Of a stretch of 35,133 nucleotides of DNA, positions 7,103 to 31,871 are shown one piece after another. The first letter of the stretch is position 1. The number at the start of each line of letters is the position of its first letter. A program made the translations under genes and the position numbers. The stretch is from a virus. The notes beneath the pieces were generated by a model. That model worked only from the letters and a program-made list of their open reading frames with translations. It was not told the origin of the DNA and searched no databases. Location: positions 1 to 35,133 of the IMG/VR virus record IMGVR_UViG_3300008110_008245. One strand, given 5' to 3'.

Positions 7103-8854
7103 TTAGCCAACTTTCATATACTCAAGGACTTCAAATGGGAAAATCTTTCCACGTTTCATTTTAGTCGGCCACGGGCGTTCATCGCGGCCACCCCTAAAAT
7201 GCCTCACATCGTAGACATAGCCTTCCATTGATGTTGGGTCTGGTTGCAATGAGATACCGAACTCCGGCCAACGCGACCACACAGCAGAACCGAATGGTCG
7301 AAGCTCACGGGTGGTAAGACTTGAACCAAGAGGTGCGTGATGTTCAAGCCATAGGCCACATCCAAACTGGTCACGAATGTAGTCAAGGAAGCGAGCAACC
7401 TCAACTGCAACAGCTTCGCTTGTCCTGTTGCCAGAGTCAATGAATGACTTGTACAAAGGGCCCATAACAAGCAGGTCTGGCTTAATCTTCTCAACAGTCT
7501 CTTCAACAAGAAGCCTGTCTGAGACACTCAGCAAGTCAATTCCAGCTGGCTTGATGAGAAGGTGGGCTTCAACCTGTTCAATACGCTTGCCATTCATCAA
7601 TTGCGTACGGGCGATTGCAGCATTCATAATGCTACGGGATGTGCGCCGGATGATTCGCTCTGGGTTCTCAAGGTCAATAGTCAATGTCCTAATTGGAGGC
7701 ATTGATTGATACGTAAACGGATTGACACCAGCTGCAGAGAGGATTGCAACCTGTCGTGCAAGCATTGTCTTTCCAACGCCTTCGGCTGCAACAACGATTA
7801 CTCGCTCTTTACGCTCTAGTAGTCCAGGGATAATCCAATCAAAACTGTCGTTGTCTGATTCAGAGATGAAACTTTCCCAGTTGACCAAGCGACCAGTGTC
7901 AGTGCGCTCACTGATTGTCATTGATGTAAGAGCAATGCTTGCCCGGTTTAGCTTCTGCGAGTCACTGAGGTTTTCTGAATCAAAGATGTCATTAATCTTC
8001 ACAAGAATTGAGTCCATTTGAGATGGCTCTTCTTGTTCTTCTTCTACGGGTGATTCAACATAATTGGAAAGAGGGATGAAGTCATCAAAAGTTTTTCCAG
8101 CAGCAAAGTGGTCATAGGTATCTTTTCCTGAAGCAGGGAGCCATACGCCACCGGTGCATCCAGCTTCATTTAGTTTGGCGCGTACATCCATGGCAAACGA
8201 CTTGCCAACATCATCGTTATCTGAAACAACTTCAACATGGGCTCCGGCTAGGACTTTTGTAAAACCGTCCTCCCACTTGTTCCTACCTGCTCCACCTGGG
8301 CCTGTAGTTGCGATAATTCCTAACTCAATTAGAGCATCGGCATCTTTTTCGCCCTCAACAACCCAAATAGGTTCGTTGTTCTTTACTCCCTCAATGACTG
8401 CGGGCAGGTTGTAAAGAATCTTGCTGATTCCAGAAAGAGAATAAAGCCAGTCTCCACTTTTCTCTGGGTTTGGGCGGCGTTGAAGAAACGACTTAGTTCC
8501 GTCTTCACGCAAGAACCGTTGCTTCTCGTATGCAAGCTCACCATTTTCGTCTATGTACTTGTAAGTCTTTACAAGCCTCTGTTTTGGCTTGCTGTTCTTG
8601 TCAAATGTTGAAGATGGGGGGAATAGGTCTTTCTGCGTCAAACCAACTGCATCACATATCTCTGATGCGCTGCATGGTTTGCCTCTATGACAGTAAACAA
8701 CGACCTTTCCATTGTCGTCTTTGATAGAAAGCGACGGGTTGTTGTCATCATTACGACACGGGCATCGAGCTTGCCACTGTCCATCACCACCTCGGACGCC
8801 TTGAAGCTTGCTTAAGAAGTTTGAAACTGTAACTGAGGCGGTGTAGGTCATCAT
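7103..8854 (-). CDS. Bifunctional phage DNA primase-helicase (583 aa)
   Basis: Domains in order: zinc-binding domain with C31, C33, C55 (followed by H56) and C61; TOPRIM domain with VVEGEKDADAL (E168-D171) and SDNDD (211-215); a linker rich in acidic residues; then a RecA-like helicase with Walker A AEGVGKT at 357-363, a Walker B-like LLVMGP strand and LEHHAPLG. This is the layout of gp4/RepA-type primase-helicases that lay down lagging-strand primers and unwind the fork. All key residues are present. ATGATG start overlaps the WhiB stop, and WhiB, DUF932 and HTH genes are cotranscribed. Confidence 0.88.
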   Translation of the reverse strand: MMTYTASVTVSNFLSKLQGVRGGDGQWQARCPCRNDDNNPSLSIKDDNGKVVVYCHRGKPCSASEICDAVGLTQKDLFPPSSTFDKNSKPKQRLVKTYKYIDENGELAYEKQRFLREDGTKSFLQRRPNPEKSGDWLYSLSGISKILYNLPAVIEGVKNNEPIWVVEGEKDADALIELGIIATTGPGGAGRNKWEDGFTKVLAGAHVEVVSDNDDVGKSFAMDVRAKLNEAGCTGGVWLPASGKDTYDHFAAGKTFDDFIPLSNYVESPVEEEQEEPSQMDSILVKINDIFDSENLSDSQKLNRASIALTSMTISERTDTGRLVNWESFISESDNDSFDWIIPGLLERKERVIVVAAEGVGKTMLARQVAILSAAGVNPFTYQSMPPIRTLTIDLENPERIIRRTSRSIMNAAIARTQLMNGKRIEQVEAHLLIKPAGIDLLSVSDRLLVEETVEKIKPDLLVMGPLYKSFIDSGNRTSEAVAVEVARFLDYIRDQFGCGLWLEHHAPLGSSLTTRELRPFGSAVWSRWPEFGISLQPDPTSMEGYVYDVRHFRGGRDERPWPTKMKRGKIFPFEVLEYMKVG

Positions 8855-9204
8855 GTGCTCATTAACTGTTGTAGTCGGATAGTTTCATCATACCGTCGGG
8901 TTTTAAAATTCATCTTCTGGCGGAGGAATTTGCGTTGGCTCTCTGTCATACCTCCCCATATTCCAAATGGCTCCCACTCCATTGCATATGTGAGACATTC
9001 CATCTGTATGGAGCACTTTGAGCAGATGCTTTTTGCGTTGTTTATCTTTTCAAGCTCATCTTTGCCTAGTGGAGGTTCAGGGAAAAACCAATCAGTCGGA
9101 TAAGAGATGCAAGCTCCACCCTTTGGGAAATCTGGAGGACCTTCAAGATTCAGCGTCTCGTGTCTACCATTGAACTGCTGATTCTTTTTTTCTTCCATTG
9201 TCAT
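8851..9204 (-). CDS. WhiB-family iron-sulfur regulator (117 aa)
   Basis: Four conserved cysteines C32, C61, C64 and C70 (C-x28-C-x2-C-x5-C) for a 4Fe-4S cluster, and the G-[IV]-W-G-G turn at 81-85, followed by a basic C-terminal tail. WhiB proteins bind the primary sigma factor and DNA and are confined to actinobacteria and their phages, which identifies the host group. First of three WhiB paralogues in the window; placed inside the replication operon, overlapping the primase start. A regulator of host or phage transcription is inferred. Confidence 0.9.
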   Translation of the reverse strand: MTMEEKKNQQFNGRHETLNLEGPPDFPKGGACISYPTDWFFPEPPLGKDELEKINNAKSICSKCSIQMECLTYAMEWEPFGIWGGMTESQRKFLRQKMNFKTRRYDETIRLQQLMST

Positions 9205-17168: not shown

Positions 17169-17644
17169 AAAGGCTCTTCCCCGAATGAATCAAAGTCATT
17201 GCGGGTTGTAGCTGGACGAGCGCCTGCTCGTGCTGGTGCTTTCTGTGCAGGACGAGCGTTGACAGGGTTGCCAGAAGCATTCTCTGCCTTTGCTTTGCGC
17301 TGCAATGTCTCAATGTTGCGAACAGATACGCCAATTTCATCAGCGAGGATGTTCACGGCTGAGCGCTTCTTGCCTGATTCCTTGTCGTCCCATGTCTCTT
17401 GCTCAAGACGGCCCGTGACTGTTACACGGATGCCCTTTTCAAGAACACGCACGGCATCTTCTGCAAGATTTCGCCATGCGATGACATTGAAGTAAGAGGT
17501 CTTTTCTTGCTTCTCACCTTTTGCGTCGGTCCAGAAGTTGTTGACCGCAACAGAGAATGAAAGCTTCCCTGCTCCTGAGTCAAAGTAACGGATTTCTGGG
17601 TCCGCCGTGAGGTTTCCGGTTATTGTTACTGGCGCTGATGACAT
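17165..17644 (-). CDS. ssb: Single-stranded DNA-binding protein (159 aa)
   Basis: OB-fold of bacterial SSB: VTITGNLTADPEIRYFDSGA at the start, FSVAVN and FNVIAWRNLAEDA in the core, GIRVTVTGRLEQETW, then a flexible tail rich in A, R and P ending DFDSFGEEPF, the acidic tip that recruits SSB-interacting proteins. Binds ssDNA during replication and recombination. Ribosome site AAGGAG and a TTGACA-N17-TAAGCT promoter lie upstream. First gene of the SSB, methyltransferase, Nmad1 operon. Confidence 0.92.
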   Translation of the reverse strand: MSSAPVTITGNLTADPEIRYFDSGAGKLSFSVAVNNFWTDAKGEKQEKTSYFNVIAWRNLAEDAVRVLEKGIRVTVTGRLEQETWDDKESGKKRSAVNILADEIGVSVRNIETLQRKAKAENASGNPVNARPAQKAPARAGARPATTRNDFDSFGEEPF

Positions 17645-17686
17645 GTTCGTATTCTCCTTGTGTTCAGTTGATTTATCGCCAAAAGC

Positions 17687-17715
17687 AGCTTATCACCCAT
17701 GCTAGGCTCTGTCAA
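17687..17715 (-). promoter_or_regulatory. Promoter for the ssb operon, TTGACA-N17-TAAGCT
   Basis: On the minus strand TTGACA covers 17715-17710 and TAAGCT 17692-17687 with a 17-nt spacer. The -35 overlaps the ATG of the divergent gene at 17715, so the two directions of transcription must interfere with each other. Confidence 0.7.
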
Positions 17716-17933
17716 TGGCAAATAACCCTTTTGAAATAAGGCTTTCGTTGACCAATGCGATTGCCGATTCGCTGTTTGATATTGCTTTTGATGAGAGCCT
17801 ATCGGACAAAGAGCTTGCACAACAACTCGCAGACTACAAAGATGTTGCGGCAATGATTCTTGATGACCTTGGATGTGAAGTCCTTGAACTCAAAGATGGA
17901 AAGATGATTTGTTCTTTTAGTCCACAAAATTAA
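17715..17933 (+). CDS. Small acidic protein next to the RNA array (72 aa)
   Basis: ATG 17715; the nearest -10-like box is TAGGCT at 17703-17708, so the mRNA may be leaderless. Helical acidic protein (ADSLFDIAFDESLSDKELAQ, DVAAMILDDLGCEVLEL) with no recognised family. Its stop lies 2 nt before the first CGGGACTA tag, so transcription from this gene would run straight into the array. It may share its promoter with the array. Confidence 0.6.
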   Translation: MANNPFEIRLSLTNAIADSLFDIAFDESLSDKELAQQLADYKDVAAMILDDLGCEVLELKDGKMICSFSPQN

Positions 17934-17943
17934 TACGGGACTA

Positions 17944-18152
17944 ACAACTACCAGGAGTAAATTGGAGCGCAGAAGGAGCGCAGCGACTGGTATTCCAAGA
18001 GAATACGGAAGGTTCCATTTATTTTATTTCCGAATGGCTGTAGGCCGAAGGCCGTAAGCCTGAGAGCGATAGCGTGAAATGAAAAAATGGAGGGAGTATT
18101 TTCGCGGAATACGAGCAGGCAATTTCTCCGGGGACTTTTATTCAACTATGTT
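17944..18152 (+). ncRNA. Array unit 1
   Basis: An outer stem pairs CCAGGAGTAAATT (from 17953) with AATTTCTCCGG near 18121. Within it GGTATTCC pairs with GGAATACG, CATTTATTTTATTTC with GAAATGAAAAAATG, and GGCC-GAA-GGCC forms a triloop mini-hairpin. The structure is a long imperfect rod. Confidence 0.6.
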
Positions 18153-18160
18153 CGGGACTA

Positions 18161-18314
18161 GTGAATGAACTAAGCATTTGCGTACGAAGTCGAAGTGCTG
18201 CGCAGCTGTTTAGGGCGTTGTGCACGTCGCACGTGCAAGCGAAGCGTCAAAAGCCCTAACAGCGAAGCAACAATTCGACTGTATGCAATGCGGTAATTGT
18301 GATGAGAATTAATA
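18161..18314 (+). ncRNA. Array unit 2
   Basis: Nested pairing: GCATTTGCGTAC with GTATGCAATGC (outer), TCGAAGTGCTG with CAACAATTCGA, GCTGTTTAGGGC with GCCCTAACAGC, and an apical GCACGT-CGC-ACGTGC hairpin. An almost continuous rod of about 120 nt. Confidence 0.65.
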
Positions 18315-19318
18315 CGGGACTAATTACTGCCGGGTGCAAACAGCGAAGTTGCTTTCTTTTCGAGCATGGCGAGAGCGAGAAGGTTCCAGAAGCGCAGTTA
18401 TTTTGCGATTAAAGATTTTAAGGGAATGCTCGAGAATGCGAGCGTTGGAAGACGAGAAGCTTGAATGTAAATAGTAAAACTTCGGGACTAGAGACCATTC
18501 AAGCGGTGAGTCTTTCGAGGCGAGATACGAGAGCGTGTACTTAAAAGATTTAAGAGTGAAATAATGAGCACTCTGGAATTTCGAGCGTTCGCCGAGTGAG
18601 AAAAGAAGCACAAGCAAAAGTTGTGATATTTATAGCAAGCGAAGCTTGCGGGACTATAGAGAATGTTTTGCAATCAATGTTCAACAAACAGCTTTACGAA
18701 GCGCAACCGGGCGGCTGCTGAAGGTCGGTGGTAGCTCTTGAGCGGACACCGCCGGAAGCATCCGCAGGTAAGCGAGTAGGCGTGGACTTTTATTCAACAA
18801 GAAAAAACGGGACTAATAACCACATGGTTAGGCATGTGTCTGTTTTGAAAAGGAGTGGAGCGACTGTTGGTTTTTAAAAAATACGGAAGAGACTCTTTTT
18901 TGTCTTTTTTGAGCGAGGCACGAGCGAAAGCGACGATTTTTGGAGCGGTAAAAAGAAAAAAAGAGAGGGAGTATTTTTTAATAAACCATGAAAAACGGCA
19001 CTGCCGGGAATTGTTAGACAAATCATTGCGGGACTAATAACTAACAACAATGAGCATTCCGAACGAAGCCAGAGCAGCCGCCCAGCGTGCGTTGGCGAAG
19101 TATGAGACAACGACGCCGGGCGTCTGCCTGGCAAGTGAGGAGGCGAAGTGAAACTTCATGTTTGTCTTTACGGGACTAACTCTTGCGAGCGAGCAAGCAT
19201 TGCATTTTCGTTCGACTCGGAGTGAGCGTGCTGTTCCGAGGTACGAAGGAAACGCAAAGCGAACGTAGGTCGAAAAGAAAATGTATGCGGTGAGCGAGTA
19301 CTAGGTAAAACGGGACTT

Positions 19319-19558
19319 ATATGTTGCAGGACTGTTCGACGAGTTGGTTAGCGACGAAGTGTTATTTCGTGTACCCAGAAGGAGGAGTACGGTATGCGTA
19401 GGGAAATGCGAAGCAACGAAGTGCGACAGCAATTCGGCGCTAGCATAAGCGAAGCGACCGTGCGACCGAACTTCTGGGGTAGCGAAATACACGAGGAGCG
19501 TTCCAACAAGGCGAATGTCCGGGATGTCGCAATCAAAGATAAATATCTATTGAAGTCT
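19319..19558 (+). ncRNA. Array unit 9
   Basis: A long arm pairs GTGTTATTTCG plus TACCCAGAAG (about 19358-19380) with CTTCTGGGGTA plus CGAAATACAC (about 19471-19492). The interior is branched, with aagcgaagcg words. Confidence 0.6.
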
Positions 19559-19798
19559 CGGGACTAAGTAGTTCATTGAATCAATGATGTTTTTCTTTCC
19601 TACCAGCAGCTTAGACAGATAAGAAATCTAGGCGATTCTAGTGAAGCGCAGCGAAGCTATGAATCGACGATTACCGGGTTCAAAAGCGGAGGGTTGTTGA
19701 GGCTGCGCAGCGGACGAAAACATCCGTAGCGTTGAACGCGGTAAAGATTTCGTATATGGATAAGCGAGAACTATTCATTCAATGTCCGTACGGGGCTG

Positions 19799-19941
19799 AA
19801 AACCTAAACAGTCATACCAGTCATTCAAGATGAGGAAACGCAATTTTCACGACCCCCCAGAGCGAGCACAAAATCATTTTTGATTTTGATGCTTCGCTCC
19901 GTGAAAATTCGTTGGTGCCTAAGTTGTTAGATAAATCTGCA
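19799..19941 (+). ncRNA. Array unit 11
   Basis: AATTTTCACG pairs perfectly with CGTGAAAATT, enclosing GAGCGAGCACAAAATCA paired with TGATTTTGATGCTTCGCTC around a TTT loop. About 30 bp of nearly continuous helix. It ends in GTTGTTAGAT and the variant tag CGGGACTT. Confidence 0.65.
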
Positions 19942-20639
19942 CGGGACTTGATAACAAGATTTTGTAGCACCACGGGTGGAGCGATGACTTGAGTGCGAGT
20001 ATCGCTGTAGTGGAGCGGGTAAATCGATGAAGCTAGCGAGCGATTTTTGTGCAACAAAATGAAGCGAGCGTTGCTGAAGAGATTTCTCGCGTAACGGAAG
20101 TGGACGAGCGACTCAGTCAGAGCGTAACTCCGTTGGTGATGCAAATCTGGTGAGTTTTATTCAATTTGCTACGGGGCTTAAAAGCCGGGTGTTCGTTTCT
20201 CTCTGTGAGCCAGAGGTAGTGAGCATCAATAAACTTATTGACGAGGCGAAGGCTCTGGATAGGTTAATTGGTGCGGCGACTCGCTAAATGGGTTAGCGAT
20301 GACTAATCAATTCTCTTTCGTGTCATCGGGACTAGAGACTTGATGCCGGGAAGAGCTAATGCATTTAGTGATTCGCAAGCAACGGTTAACCTTCCAGAGA
20401 CACGCCTGAAGTCAAAAAGTTTATTGGAGCGAACGGTCTCTGGAGAACAGGAGAACGAACATGGCAGGGAATCGGGACTATAAAGTTTTTGGGGTAATGG
20501 TTAGATATCTCGACCGAGCGAATGTGCTGCGTAGTTTCGGTGCGAGGGATTCGGATTACTCCGAAGCCGAGCGCCGAGCGGAGCATCACGTGAGCGAGAG
20601 AGAGTAGCGGTAGTTGTCCGGTGAATATCTACGGGACTA

Positions 20640-20922
20640 ATAAGTAGCGAGTAGTTTCTGAGTACAGAACATTAAAAAGCGTAGTGAAGCATTTTCTGGA
20701 TTGGAGACATCACCAGGTACACGAAGGAGTGATGTTTGCGTTCGGGCTTGGCGAAATACCAATCCATTGGTATGAGCTTGGTGGTTCGCAGAACTCACCA
20801 ACCCGACAAGCAAACTGAAACGACTGAAGTGTCCGCAGTGATGTTGGAGAGCCAGAATTGCGAACGTAGCGTTTAATGTGGCGTACTCGGAACACGAGCG
20901 GTGACTGTTATTCGATTTGTAT
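20640..20922 (+). ncRNA. Array unit 16, homologue of unit 19
   Basis: Aligns with unit 19 over about 200 nt. Key hairpins: ATACCAAT with ATTGGTAT (20756-20773) and GGTTC-GCA-GAAC (20783-20794) flanked by GGT and CACC. In unit 19 the first hairpin has a different sequence but still pairs perfectly, which is compensatory change. Ends in GTTATTCGATTTGTAT before the tag. Confidence 0.7.
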
Positions 20923-20930
20923 CGGGACTA

Positions 20931-21192
20931 ATAAATAAAAAAACTAATACCGGGAAGTTATTTCATCCGCAGAACCACCCGTAGTGAGAAAACTGATGAG
21001 CACATTTATGGGCGAAATCGTTTTCGAACGGGGGGTGGTGAGCGGTGAATAACTTTGTAGCGCAACAAGACTGAGCCCAAGGTGGAGCGAGGAACCCATG
21101 CGCTGCCAAGCCGAAGGTTGGCCGCGTATGGGCTGCGAAGCGTAACCTGAGGCGATGTCGTAGTGAAGCGGGCGCTGTTATCTAAGACGCTT
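20931..21192 (+). ncRNA. Array unit 17, homologue of unit 22
   Basis: Shares GAGCGAGGAACCC and GGGCTGCGAAGCG with unit 22. CCCAT (21095-21099) pairs with ATGGG (21128-21132) where unit 22 has CCCAG with CTGGG. GCCAA (21105-21109) pairs with TTGGC (21118-21122) around GCCGAAGG. Clear stem covariation between copies. Confidence 0.7.
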
Positions 21193-21362
21193 CGGGACTA
21201 GTAAGCACAACCAGAGCATCTTTCCTGAAGCGAAGAAGGGTGTAAGCGTAGCCTCGCACGTGCGTGGGCAGCATGCCCGTGCGTGTGCGGGCGAAGCGCA
21301 CGTCCTTCAGAGCATCAGAAAGTGCGTTTGCCTAACTCGTCCGGTAATTATGTTCGGGACTA

Positions 21363-21648
21363 GTGAATAGCGATGTTTCTCTTTTCACGCAGGAAGCCTG
21401 CGTAGCGAGCATTTTCTGCATCGTAGCCATGGCTGAGTACACAAATGAGCGATGTTTGTTGTACGGACTTGACTACATATCGAAGCAGGATTCGATATGG
21501 AGTTTGGTGGTTCGAAGAACTCACCAATCCGGGAAACAAACTGAAGCGATTGCAGTGTACGACGCTATGGCGGAGAGGCAGAATTGCGAGAGTAGCGAGG
21601 CTGTTTGCGTGAAAAAGAACAAGCGGGGATTGTTATTCAATAATCAAT
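21363..21648 (+). ncRNA. Array unit 19, homologue of unit 16
   Basis: CATATCGAA (21476-21484) pairs perfectly with TTCGATATG (21491-21499), the position of the different but equally perfect hairpin in unit 16. GGTTC-GAA-GAAC follows in the same flanks. GTACACAAA pairs with TTTGTTGTAC, and GCAGG-AAG-CCTGC caps another arm. Confidence 0.7.
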
Positions 21649-21815
21649 CGGGACTAATAAGCATGCGCATTTCGCGCAGGAAACGGAGCTCGTGACGTAG
21701 CTTCGTGGAGCGCGGAAGTTCCTTCAAGCGAACACGAGCGGAGCACGAGCGGTGTTTCCGAGAGAATGCGTCAAACAAGCAAATCACCGGGTCTTGGTTA
21801 TGAGAGTCGGGACTA

Positions 21816-22117
21816 ATTATCAAATGAAGCAAGGAAGACACTTCATTGAACGGAACGACCGATAGCGGAAGTTCCCCGTGACGAGGAACGAAGTCCGGGG
21901 ACTGTAGCGGGCGGTCGTGAGTTCATGAATGTCGCTGGTAGTGCGATTGGTGGCTAAGCATGGATACGCGGGCAAGCGGAGTACTTGCCGACGCGTGATA
22001 ACGCATCGGTGCACTGAAGACGCGCCGCTTGTCGGCAGCGGATTCGAGTGCATACGAAGCGAGGCCGTGTAGCCGTGCGGTGACACCAAATGAGCACGGA
22101 GGTTGTTATGGGGGCAT
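21816..22117 (+). ncRNA. Array unit 21, the largest
   Basis: CGACCG pairs with CGGTCG and encloses GTTCC paired with GGAAC. A second domain has CGCG plus GGCAAG pairing with CTTGCC plus CGCG around GGAGTA. About 300 nt, apparently two or three domains, ending in GTTGTTATG before the tag. Confidence 0.6.
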
Positions 22118-22125
22118 CGGGACTA

Positions 22126-22391
22126 AAAAGTGGTTACAGGCAATTCGGGTTGTTCGAGTATTGAAACATTTCATCGCGCAACCAGCACCTGAGCGGAAAA
22201 ACTGCTTTTAGCGTAGCTAAAGCGTTTTGTAGCGGTGGTGCAGGTGGAGCGTGAATGTTGACAAAGCGAGATAAGACCGAGCCTTGGTGTAGCGAGGAAC
22301 CCAGGTGAAGCCACGACGAAGTCTGGCGTAATCTGGGCTGCGAAGCGGAGCCAGTGCGAGGTTGCAATTGAGCGAGGATTGTGATTAGAGT
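22126..22391 (+). ncRNA. Array unit 22, last complete unit
   Basis: Homologue of unit 17. CCCAG (22300-22304) pairs with CTGGG (22333-22337), and GCCACGAC (22310-22317) with GTCTGGC (22321-22327) around a GAA loop. CTTTTAGC-GTA-GCTAAAG is an additional hairpin. After the final tag at 22392 the array stops and coding sequence resumes at 22466. Confidence 0.7.
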
Positions 22392-22465
22392 CGGGACTAA
22401 AGGACATGCAGCAACAGCGTTGTCTTGCCTATTAGTATTGCTTTCGCCAGGATGGAGTAAAAATA

Positions 22466-22696
22466 ATGCACAATGAGTTGACTATGACACGCAAGAAAAG
22501 TAAACCACAGTCCCGTACCGAACTTTGGCGTTGCCCTAACTGTGGCAATGAGCTCGTCGTAGGCGTTCCTGCTATGCAAGCTTCATGTAGCAATAAAGAA
22601 AAGCACACGTCAAGCACGGTTGAGATGGAATTAGTGCATTCTTTTTGGGATGACGACATCAATGGTCGCAGCGTCAAGTTTCATAAGCGTTCGTAA
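22466..22696 (+). CDS. Zinc-ribbon-like small protein (76 aa)
   Basis: RCPNCGNE at about residues 22-29 and ASCSNKEKH around 39-47 make a C-x2-C...C-x5-H zinc site. The rest is polar. ATG 22466 has GGAG upstream; a second Met six residues later is the alternative. First gene after the array. Its stop codon abuts a copy of the dispersed element. Function unknown, nucleic acid binding likely. Confidence 0.6.
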   Translation: MHNELTMTRKKSKPQSRTELWRCPNCGNELVVGVPAMQASCSNKEKHTSSTVEMELVHSFWDDDINGRSVKFHKRS

Positions 22697-22815
22697 GCCC
22701 CGCCTTCTTCTTCTGCCCTAGCCATCTCCCGGGAAACCTCAAACACCCCAGTCGGGACTGCATTTCGCACGGCCGGCTCCAGGAAAGACAACAAAAAAGT
22801 GACGGTGGCGGATGA
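22696..22815 (+). ncRNA. Dispersed element copy A
   Basis: AGCCCCGC at 22696-22703, CGGGACTGC at 22753-22761, GACGGTGGCGGATGA at 22801-22815. CCCG of the first block can pair with CGGG of the second. It occupies the gap between two small genes; no gene inside it. Confidence 0.65.
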
Positions 22816-22837
22816 CAAAAGTCACACCCCTTAGGGG

Positions 22838-22866
22838 TTGCAAGCCGCAAGTATTTTCCCTACTAT
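22838..22866 (+). promoter_or_regulatory. Promoter TTGCAA-N17-TACTAT, leaderless type
   Basis: TTGCAA 22838-22843, 17-nt spacer, TACTAT 22861-22866, ATG at 22874. TTGCAAGCCGC here recurs at 26113, next to another promoter. Confidence 0.7.
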
Positions 22867-22873
22867 TCAGTGC

Positions 22874-23083
22874 ATGCAAACAAAGCGGATTGACCAGCTC
22901 AAAGTAGGAGACATTTTTACTTGGGGCTTTCATGAGCACTATCGGGTAACAGAAATCAAAGCACCGACACGCACCAACGGCAGCACCTATCTGCTCAGCT
23001 ACATCGGCTTAGACACTGGTACCGAAATTCTCGACCGCAAAATGCCTAATAAATCAATCTGCGAATTCATCAAAGGGGAATAG
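22874..23083 (+). CDS. Small hypothetical protein, SH3/KOW-like (69 aa)
   Basis: ATG 22874 is fixed by the promoter 8 nt upstream. IDQLKVGDIFTWGFHEHYRVTEI starts like a small beta-barrel (L-x-x-G-D-x-x-x..., then a valine-rich strand), as in SH3/KOW-like domains that bind RNA or protein. The rest has strand-turn-strand character. Inference only; no family matched. Confidence 0.6.
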   Translation: MQTKRIDQLKVGDIFTWGFHEHYRVTEIKAPTRTNGSTYLLSYIGLDTGTEILDRKMPNKSICEFIKGE

Positions 23084-25082: not shown

Positions 25083-25286
25083 ATGCCTTACAAGGATAAA
25101 GAGAAACAAAAAGCCTGGCAGCGTGAGAACAGGGAGAATACATTCTCTAAAAAGCTTCGCAGGCGTGAATACGAACGAGAACGCAAGCGGCAGAAACGCC
25201 TTGAACAGATAAATCTTTTACCTGAACCCGAGCGAAGCAAAAAGCTCTCAGCGCTGCGGGGTCCGTACGCACGAAGCTTGTTCTAG
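25083..25286 (+). CDS. Small highly basic protein (67 aa)
   Basis: MPYKDKEKQKAWQRENRE is a common start of small phage basic proteins, followed by KKLRRREYERERKRQKRLEQ, a charged helix likely to bind nucleic acid. GGAGG lies upstream of the ATG. The stop abuts element copy B. Confidence 0.6.
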   Translation: MPYKDKEKQKAWQRENRENTFSKKLRRREYERERKRQKRLEQINLLPEPERSKKLSALRGPYARSLF

Positions 25287-25394
25287 AAGCTATTTAGCCC
25301 CGCTCCACCCTTCTGGGGTGTCGCAAGCCCTCAAACAACAGTCGGGACCGCGTTCCGCTGTTTTATTCTGCAACACGTCGACGGCGGCGGATGA
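25286..25394 (+). ncRNA. Dispersed element copy B
   Basis: GAAGCTATTTAGCCCCGC from 25286 (core AGCCCCGC 25296-25303), CGGGACCGC 25343-25351, GACGGCGGCGGATGA 25380-25394. CCCG of the first block can pair with CGGG of the second. The middle block has C for the usual T. Confidence 0.6.
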
Positions 25395-25416
25395 CCCGGG
25401 AAAAACCGGACCAGAA

Positions 25417-25445: not shown

Positions 25446-25520
25446 CTAATTTTCAACTCGTGCAAATTAGAACACGTCGACCTGGAATCACACGAGCTAC
25501 ACATCAAACAAACACAGTTG

Positions 25521-25635
25521 GAAGCTATTCAGCCCCGCACGCACTTGTGTGCTGCCATCTGGTCAAAGTCTTCCAAATAACACCGTGCGGGACTGCAAGG
25601 CGCTATTCGTGCGATTTGATGACGGTGCCGGATGA
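25521..25635 (+). ncRNA. Dispersed element copy C
   Basis: GAAGCTATTCAGCCCCGC from 25521, CGGGACTGC 25588-25596, GACGGTGCCGGATGA 25621-25635. Here CCCGCAC pairs perfectly with GTGCGGG, a 7-bp stem and the best pairing of all copies. A short frame across the element (25460-25681) is not believed to be a gene. Confidence 0.65.
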
Positions 25636-25700
25636 TTCTGCTGAAGCTCTCCAGGCCGGCCGACGCAGCAAATATTTTTGAAAAAATCTTTTTCCTGGGG

Positions 25701-25820: not shown

Positions 25821-25890
25821 TTCCCCTTTTTCTTGCAGCTGCAGGTATCAATCAAAGAGAAAACTTCCCGGGCCCCGGTCAAATCAAATC

Positions 25891-26012
25891 AAAAGCTTTG
25901 TAGCCCCGCCCGCCCGCGCGCGTGCGAACTGCGACGTCGACTGACATCTGGAAACGGTTTAAACCAAGCGGGACTGCAAGGTTTGGGAATTTTTAATGAC
26001 GGTGGCGGATGA
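25891..26012 (+). ncRNA. Dispersed element copy D
   Basis: AAAAGCTTTGTAGCCCCGC from 25891 (core 25902-25909), CGGGACTGC 25969-25977, GACGGTGGCGGATGA 25998-26012. CCCGC pairs with GCGGG. A GC-rich CCGCCCGCGCGCG stretch lies in the loop side. Confidence 0.65.
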
Positions 26013-26101
26013 TGCCGGGGAGCTCAGATGATTCTGCTTCGCTCGATGTCGTGGACCAGTTTTTCAGGTCAAAAAAAAATAAAAAAAATGTTTGAAAATG
26101 T

Positions 26102-29114: not shown

Positions 29115-29501
29115 ATGAATGAAAATTTGTTTGGATTCGATGAGCCGGCGCCGGCCCGGGAAACAAAAACAAAAAAATCAAAACGTTCTAAGTCAAAGCT
29201 TGTAAGCCCCGCCGAGATTCAACAAGTCTTTGATGAATGGCTACGGTGGTGCAAGACAAGCGGCCGGGGAGTTCGGCCGAAGCTTTCAGAAGAACGAATG
29301 ATAATTATCGGCTCTGCGATTTATGATTACGGCTTAACTGATTGTTTGCTTGCAGTTCAAGGATGCAGCTTGTCTTCTTGGCACATGGGAGAAAATCCCA
29401 CAGGAACAAAGTACGACGATATTGAATTAATCCTTCGTGATGCGAAACACGTCGAGCGATTTGCGTGCCTGGCAGCTGCAGAAGAAGCTAAAAACGATTG
29501 A
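29115..29501 (+). CDS. Hypothetical protein carrying an element-like segment (128 aa)
   Basis: ATG 29115 has AGGA upstream; ATG 29094 is an in-frame alternative. Basic low-complexity start (TKTKKSKRSKSK), then a helical domain (PAEIQQVFDEWLRWCKTSGRG, EERMIIIGSAIYDYGLTD) with tryptophans. The codons KLVSPA contain AAGCTTGTAAGCCCCGCC, matching the 5' block of the dispersed element. A DNA-binding or replication accessory role is inferred from the basic tail only. Confidence 0.6.
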   Translation: MNENLFGFDEPAPARETKTKKSKRSKSKLVSPAEIQQVFDEWLRWCKTSGRGVRPKLSEERMIIIGSAIYDYGLTDCLLAVQGCSLSSWHMGENPTGTKYDDIELILRDAKHVERFACLAAAEEAKND

Positions 29502-29504
29502 CAA

Positions 29505-29645
29505 AGCTTTTAAGCCCCGCTACAATTACCGGATGGCCAAACAAGACGTGCAGATTCAAGTCGGGACTGCACAGCTTGCTGGTATGCAGTTGTCGGGACT
29601 GCATACCAGCTGGCCAGGGTCTTTTTTGATGACGGTGGCGTATGA
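29505..29645 (+). ncRNA. Dispersed element copy G with duplicated core and extra hairpin
   Basis: AAAGCTTTTAAGCCCCGC (core 29513-29520), CGGGACTGC twice (29562-29570 and 29594-29602), GACGGTGGCGTATGA 29631-29645. The second core lies in the loop and right arm of a perfect 12-bp hairpin GCTGGTATGCAG (29578-29589) with CTGCATACCAGC (29599-29610). Lies between two genes. Confidence 0.65.
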
Positions 29646-30866: not shown

Positions 30867-30941
30867 CACGCAGTAGCTCAGCGGTAGAGCACCCGTGGAA
30901 TCTAACGGGTGGTGTCTAGGTTCAAGTCCCAGACTGCGTGA
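30867..30941 (+). tRNA. tRNA with an 8-nt anticodon loop, isotype uncertain
   Basis: Acceptor CACGCAG/CTGCGTG, D-arm GCTC/GAGC and T-arm (CTAGG, TTCAAGT, CCCAG; one mismatch by eye) are sound. The anticodon stem CCCGT/ACGGG closes a loop GGAATCTA of 8 nt with no U at position 33, so the anticodon cannot be read in the usual way. It may be a frameshifting or non-standard tRNA, or a mutated gene. Confidence 0.75.
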
Positions 30942-30944
30942 CAA

Positions 30945-31245: not shown

Positions 31246-31485
31246 TTACTTGCTCGTTGGCTCTGGTCTCACGAACTGCAATCGCCAGTTCTTCTGTTCA
31301 AACTCGAGCGTCTTCTCATAAGCGTTCTGAAGTCGCTCCAGAGTTTCCTTCGTCTCGTTGTACTCAGTTGTTCCAACCCTCTGGCTCATCTTGAGCTCAG
31401 CCATCTTCCCAACCAGTAGCCGGCACATCATCTTGTACTGGTACTCATTCATCACCACTGGCACCACATGATTCTTCTTGCTCAT
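31246..31485 (-). CDS. Hypothetical helical protein (79 aa)
   Basis: ATG 31485 overlaps the WhiB stop (TAATG). All-helical by eye (MCRLLVGKMAELKMSQRVG, then TKETLERLQNAYEKTLEFEQ), with a likely coiled coil. Cotranscribed with the WhiB. No family recognised. Confidence 0.6.
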   Translation of the reverse strand: MSKKNHVVPVVMNEYQYKMMCRLLVGKMAELKMSQRVGTTEYNETKETLERLQNAYEKTLEFEQKNWRLQFVRPEPTSK

Positions 31486-31871
31486 TAGTCGTTCCACATC
31501 TGGCTAAGCGTTGGCTTAGTCGGTGTTATTCCTCTCCGTCGTTGTTCTGCCGCTAACTGTCTTGATGTCATCCCTGCCCATACCCCGTGCATGTCAGCAG
31601 GTGGAAACTCTAGTGCATACTCCAGGCACTGTTTACGAACGGTGCAATAGGCGCACATCTCTCTAGCCCCCTGAATGTAGCTAATGTCCTTATGCCCTTT
31701 GGGAAACATGTCTTCTGTACGTCCCTTGCATCTTGCTAGGTCCATCCAGTCGTATCTTTGTATAGCAATACCACTAGCTATGTCTTGTAAATTTCTTCTT
31801 ACACTTTTATTCTTAGAGTCTCTTTCCTCTTTAGTCTCTATAGATACATTTTCTGATTCAATTTCGCTCAT
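31485..31871 (-). CDS. WhiB-family iron-sulfur regulator, third copy (128 aa)
   Basis: C48, C73, C76 and C82 with the turn GVWAG at 96-100 and a basic RRRG near the C-terminus. The long N-terminal extension (about 40 residues, acidic) differs from the other two copies. Possible partner of host sigma; regulator of phage or host transcription. A hairpin of GTTTCTAC/GTAGAAAC (31874-31902) lies between it and the hydrolase gene upstream. Confidence 0.88.
   Translation of the reverse strand: MSEIESENVSIETKEERDSKNKSVRRNLQDIASGIAIQRYDWMDLARCKGRTEDMFPKGHKDISYIQGAREMCAYCTVRKQCLEYALEFPPADMHGVWAGMTSRQLAAEQRRRGITPTKPTLSQMWND

What the first reader, a model, noticed from the sequence alone, without database searches (positions are those of the whole stretch)
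20640..22391. Pairs of array units show compensatory stem changes
Units 16 and 19 align over about 200 nt: the hairpin at 20756-20773 (ATACCAAT/ATTGGTAT) is replaced at 21476-21499 by CATATCGAA/TTCGATATG, both perfect. Units 17 and 22 keep the same flanks while CCCAT/ATGGG becomes CCCAG/CTGGG. Changed sequence with retained pairing is the signature of selection on structure, so the units are duplicated paralogues maintained as folded molecules.
Basis: seen in the sequence. Interest (0 to 1): 0.85.

Follow-up and report, generated by a model that had tools for sequence, protein, structure and literature searches.

The report
Phage array of conserved rod-shaped RNAs
A virus of (probably actinobacterial) bacteria carries a 4.5-kb stretch that codes for no protein but for about 22 different long hairpin RNAs in a row; relatives show that their shapes, not their letters, are preserved, which makes this an apparently undescribed kind of viral RNA with an unknown job.

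Summary
17936-22398 holds 22 same-strand, non-coding units, each ending in CGGG(A/G)CT. Orthologous arrays (18-27 units, syntenic, 71-98% identical) occur in related metagenomic phage contigs. In a pooled test with structures from the window sequence alone, compensatory cells number 460, against 157±26 (max 215) in tree-based simulations and 138±18 under partner reassignment. Coding flanks show 4-5% doubly compensated changes, the array 25%. G·U is tolerated and A·C is not, so the + strand RNA is the folded form. In orthologues the loop G and A differ at 4%, the middle N at 29%, helices at 18%, the heptamer at 2%. A second array with no detectable sequence similarity (L024) has the same heptamer, loops and gene neighbours. 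Nothing matches Rfam, cultured phages or plasmids, and I found no description in the papers searched. Best mechanism: a transcribed string of rods that repeatedly presents generic motifs to a binding partner, as sponge or scaffold. The structural part is near certain; the role is inferred (about 0.4).

The parts
17715..17933 (+). 72-aa ORF immediately upstream of the first heptamer, probably in the same transcript; homologue at the same place in the L024 array
   Evidence: sequence; L024 homologue, whose stop codon is followed at once by CGGGACT; no Pfam or PHROG match
17936..17942 (+). first boundary heptamer CGGGACT (one of 23: 17936, 18153, 18315, 18483, 18649, 18808, 19029, 19171, 19311, 19559, 19791, 19942, 20172, 20327, 20473, 20632, 20923, 21193, 21355, 21649, 21808, 22118, 22392)
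   Evidence: extended consensus WCGGGACT[A/C]NNNA[G]Y in two arrays; 1.7% divergence in orthologues
17943..18159 (+). unit 1 (rod plus its 3' heptamer)
   Evidence: fold z -3.5; orthologues
18160..18321 (+). unit 2
18322..18489 (+). unit 3 (single-sequence fold not significant)
18490..18655 (+). unit 4
18656..18814 (+). unit 5
18815..19035 (+). unit 6
19036..19177 (+). unit 7
19178..19317 (+). unit 8
19318..19565 (+). unit 9
   Evidence: z -8.2; 18 doubly changed pairs
19566..19797 (+). unit 10
19798..19948 (+). unit 11
19949..20178 (+). unit 12: contains the clearest GNA-GC-GA module (5' side GGA-GC-GA from 19978)
20179..20333 (+). unit 13
20334..20479 (+). unit 14
20480..20638 (+). unit 15
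20639..20929 (+). unit 16 (paralogue of unit 19); tip hairpin 20756-20773
   Evidence: z -5.5
20930..21199 (+). unit 17 (paralogue of unit 22)
21200..21361 (+). unit 18
21362..21655 (+). unit 19 (paralogue of unit 16); tip hairpin 21476-21499
   Evidence: z -8.4
21656..21814 (+). unit 20
21815..22124 (+). unit 21
22125..22398 (+). unit 22 (paralogue of unit 17)
22466..22696 (+). 76-aa zinc-ribbon-like protein directly downstream of the array; candidate partner, unproven; homologue downstream of the L024 array (30% identical)

Best explanation
Shown: 17936-22398 is a non-coding + strand array of 22 distinct rod-like structures under selection on base pairing. The rods are interrupted by GA/GA and GNA/GNA internal loops, and the units are divided by an almost invariant heptamer, CGGG(A/G)CT. 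Inferred: the array is transcribed as one RNA together with the small ORF 17715-17933 and perhaps the zinc-ribbon gene. Because letters in helices and tips drift while the G and A of the GNA loops and the heptamer are held, and because units are gained, lost and shuffled whole (18-27 per phage), the RNA most likely acts by multivalency. It would present many copies of a generic shape and a short motif to a binding partner, most likely a protein, as a sponge (decoy) or scaffold during infection. The partner and the benefit to the phage are unknown.
For: Covariation; coding control. Strand: at paired sites 81 one-sided changes to G-T against 33 to A-C, while the same types at unpaired sites are 270:261. 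Fold energy: mean z -3.2 against -0.4±1.1 in coding controls. Loops: GNA/GNA 24 against 0.3±0.5 in shuffles, GA/GA 18 against 2.5±1.9; replicated in L024, 15 against 0.3 and 23 against 1.9. Divergence by class: heptamer 1.7%, GNA G and A 4.2%, GNA middle 28.6%, helices 17.6%, tips 23.8%; fast tips argue against unit-specific antisense targets. L024's units share no blastn similarity with the window's but keep the heptamer, the loops and the neighbours SSB, small ORF and zinc ribbon. Units vary in number and order as modules.
Against: No expression data: transcription is inferred from covariation and strand bias. The heptamer is not predicted to be clearly unpaired (0.38 against 0.34 for GC-matched 7-mers), so an exposed binding site is not shown. 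Most units keep their order and identity between relatives, more than a purely dosage-based sponge needs. No partner is identified; CsrA and TROVE are absent from the 174-kb genome. No promoter was recognised upstream by the simple scan. GA/GA divergence (14%) is only slightly below that of helices.
Confidence: 0.4

Rival explanations
1. The transcript is a precursor that is cut at the heptamers into about 22 separate stable RNAs, like a tRNA array, each with its own or a shared job.
For: The heptamer marks each unit boundary exactly and is the only long invariant sequence. Units are gained and lost whole. Most orthologous units keep their place, as if individually useful.
Against: No conserved unit-specific accessible sequence: tips diverge faster than helices. 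No known ribozyme or RNase signal matched. No 5'/3'-end data.
Confidence: 0.3
2. The structures act as DNA (hairpins extruded in single-stranded DNA for replication, packaging or cassette-type recombination), with the heptamer as a DNA site.
For: The array lies next to the SSB gene. Units move as cassettes in one orientation. Sheared G-A and GNA motifs are also stable in DNA (own knowledge).
Against: G-T tolerated over A-C fixes a + strand, RNA-like constraint, although G-T is also the milder mismatch in DNA. No tyrosine recombinase, Y1 transposase or reverse transcriptase in the 174-kb relative. No inverted heptamer within the array, unlike attC sites.
Confidence: 0.1
3. A type III toxin-antitoxin or anti-toxin decoy: the array is an RNA antitoxin and the downstream zinc-ribbon protein, or a host toxin, is what it binds.
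For: Layout of RNA array followed by a small conserved gene in both lineages. Type III antitoxins consist of multiple RNA repeats (PMC8860590).
Against: Units are 140-310 nt rods with strongly diverged sequences. No ToxN match in the genome, but that control search rang nowhere. The zinc ribbon has no significant family match.
Confidence: 0.1
4. The hairpins are chance palindromes, an alignment artefact, or fossils without function.
For: The fold of a few units (3, 14) is poorly supported on its own.
Against: All nulls and controls are exceeded by a wide margin, and the loop and heptamer signature recurs in an unalignable array.
Confidence: 0.01

Closest known systems
GOLLD and ROOL RNAs (large phage/prophage ncRNAs)
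   Same: Large, elaborately structured non-coding RNAs of phages, often near tRNA genes, function unknown (PMC12286853); here a tRNA cluster lies about 8 kb away
   Different: Those are single RNAs of about 660-800 nt with conserved folds, pseudoknots and Rfam models. This is 18-27 diverged rods in tandem with no Rfam match
CsrB/RsmZ-type sponge RNAs
   Same: About 20 copies of a short G-rich motif (CAGGA-type there, CGGGACT here) among stem-loops; multivalent titration would be the same principle (own knowledge; GGA motifs, PMC4894983)
   Different: CsrB is about 370 nt with motifs in hairpin loops. Here units are 140-310 nt, the motif lies between rods, and no CsrA is in the phage genome
Type III toxin-antitoxin RNA arrays (ToxI)
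   Same: Tandem structured RNA repeats followed by a small gene
   Different: ToxI repeats are short, near-identical pseudoknots cut by the toxin (own knowledge). These units are long, diverged rods and no ToxN relative was found
Integron cassette arrays (attC sites)
   Same: Modules in one orientation, each with an imperfect palindrome whose structure rather than sequence is kept, and a 7-nt junction site
   Different: No ORFs in the modules, heptamer not GTTRRRY, no complementary heptamer in the palindrome, no integrase, and an RNA-like strand signal
CRISPR arrays
   Same: A repeated element separated by different sequences
   Different: Only 7 nt is repeated; the spacers are structured, conserved between phages and vary from 119 to 314 nt

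Membership tests
Any Rfam 15 family (GOLLD, ROOL, OLE, ribozymes, etc.) | match to the covariance model | tested here: not met
   no match at gathering threshold in the window except tRNAs; none up to E = 1 in 17600-22900
Structured ncRNA in general | covariation above a phylogeny-aware expectation | tested here: met
   460 compensatory cells against 157±26 simulated; slid and shuffled controls; coding control
Structured ncRNA in general | transcribed | not testable with these tools
   no RNA data; strand bias of wobble pairs only
CRISPR array | identical repeats of 23-47 nt with spacers of uniform length | tested here: not met
   7-nt invariant element, variable spacings
Type III TA (ToxIN) | ToxN-like toxin gene | tested here: inconclusive
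   no PF13958 match in the 174-kb relative, but the control search rang nowhere
Type III TA (ToxIN) | near-identical short tandem RNA repeats | tested here: not met
   units 140-310 nt, most with no detectable similarity to each other
Integron cassette array | attC with paired R''/R' core sites and an integrase | tested here: not met
   0 inverted heptamers in the array; no PF00589
CsrB/RsmZ sponge | binds CsrA through GGA in hairpin loops | tested here: inconclusive
   no CsrA in the phage genome; host unknown; heptamer not in a predicted hairpin loop and not clearly exposed
tRNA array | tRNA genes in the units | tested here: not met
   ARAGORN finds none in 17900-22400

The most novel reading that the evidence does not exclude
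A new class of viral RNA: a 3.7-6 kb polyvalent transcript of 18-27 modular rods, built from repeated G-A-rich GNA/GNA modules and divided by a 7-nt tag. It evolves by shuffling whole units while every letter except the modules and the tag is replaceable, and it works as an RNA decoy or scaffold against a host factor or as a higher-order RNA assembly.
Probability: 0.35. Interest if true: 0.9.

Novelty: categorically new. Interest (0 to 1): 0.77.

Why it matters
Known structured phage RNAs are mostly single molecules with conserved sequence. Here a probably complete 174-kb relative spends about 3.7 kb on roughly 18 different RNAs that share only architecture, a seven-letter tag and a special kind of internal loop. 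Two arrays with no alignable sequence keep that architecture, so function appears to depend on shape rather than sequence. The presumed RNA partner (host defence, RNA-binding protein, or RNA assembly) becomes directly testable, and sequence-based searches would miss such elements elsewhere.

Tried and rejected
1) A conserved stem bridging each heptamer: score 273 against 250±12 with swapped flanks; only a few good cases, not adopted. 2) The heptamer as an exposed site: 0.38 unpaired against 0.34 control, not shown. 3) Avoidance of CGGGACT elsewhere in the phage genome: 0 copies in 161 kb, but 0.4 expected, so no claim. 4) A strict GNA-2bp-GA composite as a universal module: exact in only 1 unit of each array, so the loop types are claimed separately. 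5) Regular loop spacing: no clear period. 6) Other arrays: pattern hits in L107 are a coding repeat, L177 is coding, other genome-contig hits are chance; SSB relatives at 50-73% identity other than L023/L024 have no such array. 7) Sigma-70 promoters and intrinsic terminators in the array: no excess. 8) Reverse transcriptase, TROVE/Ro60, RtcB, CsrA, integrase and Y1 transposase in the 174-kb relative: none. 9) A covariance model of a whole unit was not built: about 300 positions would exceed the calibration limit.

Full report
What was checked. The region holds 23 copies of CGGG[AG]CT from 17936 to 22392, all on the + strand, defining 22 units of 140-310 nt. None of it looks coding; the window's longest stretch without an ORF of at least 120 aa starts here. 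No tRNA or Rfam family lies in it.

Is the structure real? Single units fold better than dinucleotide-shuffled versions (mean z -3.2, units 9 and 19 below -8; coding controls -0.4±1.1). SSB-anchored searches gave related contigs with orthologous arrays. I folded each window unit alone, aligned orthologues by sequence only, and counted. There were 460 cells with both sides changed and pairing kept, in 167 pairs. Reassigning partners among pairs of the same type gives 138±18 cells and 58±7 pairs. Simulating each alignment along its own tree without structure gives 157±26 cells and 69±10 pairs. Of all changed cells, 25% are doubly compensated in the array against 4-5% in the neighbouring coding region. 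For the 16/19 family, 98.5% of cells pair and 23 of 71 pairs are doubly changed; sliding partners by 1-3 columns drops pairing to 37-45%. The 17/22 family behaves likewise. A few units (3, 14) are not well supported by their single-sequence fold.

Which strand? At paired sites, one-sided changes lead to G-T 81 times and to A-C 33 times; the same types of change at unpaired sites are balanced, 270:261. The + strand RNA is the likely selected molecule.

What is conserved? Rod internal loops are dominated by GA/GA and by GNA/GNA with 5'-Y..G-3' closing, the context in which sheared G-A pairs are expected (own knowledge). Counts exceed shuffles many-fold (24 against 0.3 for GNA/GNA; 18 against 2.5 for GA/GA) and do so again in the L024 array (15 against 0.3; 23 against 1.9). 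Across orthologues the loop G and A differ at 4.2%, the middle N at 28.6%, helix bases at 17.6%, tips at 23.8% and the heptamer at 1.7%. The extended boundary consensus WCGGGACT[A/C]NNNA[G]Y is shared by both arrays.

Context. Upstream lie SSB (opposite strand) and a 72-aa ORF ending 2 nt before the first heptamer. Downstream is a 76-aa zinc-ribbon-like gene. All three are kept in L024, although no unit of L024 matches a window unit by blastn. A relative, G001, is 173,962 bp with a 123-nt terminal repeat, so probably complete. It has a tail sheath and a major head protein, hence a myovirus. Two WhiB genes in the window and primase/helicase similarity to Arthrobacter and Gordonia phages suggest an actinobacterial host. 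Cultured phage and plasmid collections have no DNA match.

Evolution. Complete arrays have 18-27 units. L007 lacks units 12-14 and 17; L032 carries its unit 17 at the end; L012 and L020 carry a duplicated block around units 7-11. Changes respect unit boundaries.

Mechanism. What is held constant is generic (shape, G-A modules, heptamer), while tips that could base-pair with targets vary fastest. This favours a multivalent platform (sponge or scaffold) over a set of antisense RNAs. Processing into single RNAs at the heptamer remains open, and so do a toxin-antitoxin-like role and a DNA-level role, with less support. The pairing state of the heptamer is unresolved, and expression has not been observed.

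Known systems. GOLLD and ROOL (PMC12286853) are the nearest kind by setting, CsrB the nearest by principle, ToxI and integrons the nearest by layout. None is matched on its tested defining features. Literature searches gave no description of such an array; the library holds open-access papers only.

Noticed in passing
window 22680-22815, 25285-25400, 25520-25640, 25890-26015, 29500-29645: A second dispersed element in five copies: + strand AAGCTNTTNAGCCCCGC, about 40-75 nt, CGGGACTGCA, then GACGGTGGCGGATGA. One copy folds well as minus-strand RNA (z -4.5), whose CGGGGCTNNAAAGCTT resembles the array boundary; a copy also follows the zinc-ribbon gene in L024.
   Followed up: partly
window 30867-30942: A weak tRNA (33.7 bits) with a four-base anticodon call (aatc) in a cluster with Arg, Asn and Thr tRNAs; possibly a decayed or unusual tRNA.
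   Followed up: no
window 8851-9204 and 31485-31871: Two WhiB-family regulators in one phage window.
   Followed up: partly
L012 and L020 arrays (minus strand): A block of units around 7-11 is duplicated, and in L032 unit 17 sits at the array end: whole-unit shuffling.
   Followed up: yes
L112-L120 (record of L007): CGGGAC is very rare outside the array region (2 copies in 161 kb, both strands). The cause is unknown.
   Followed up: no
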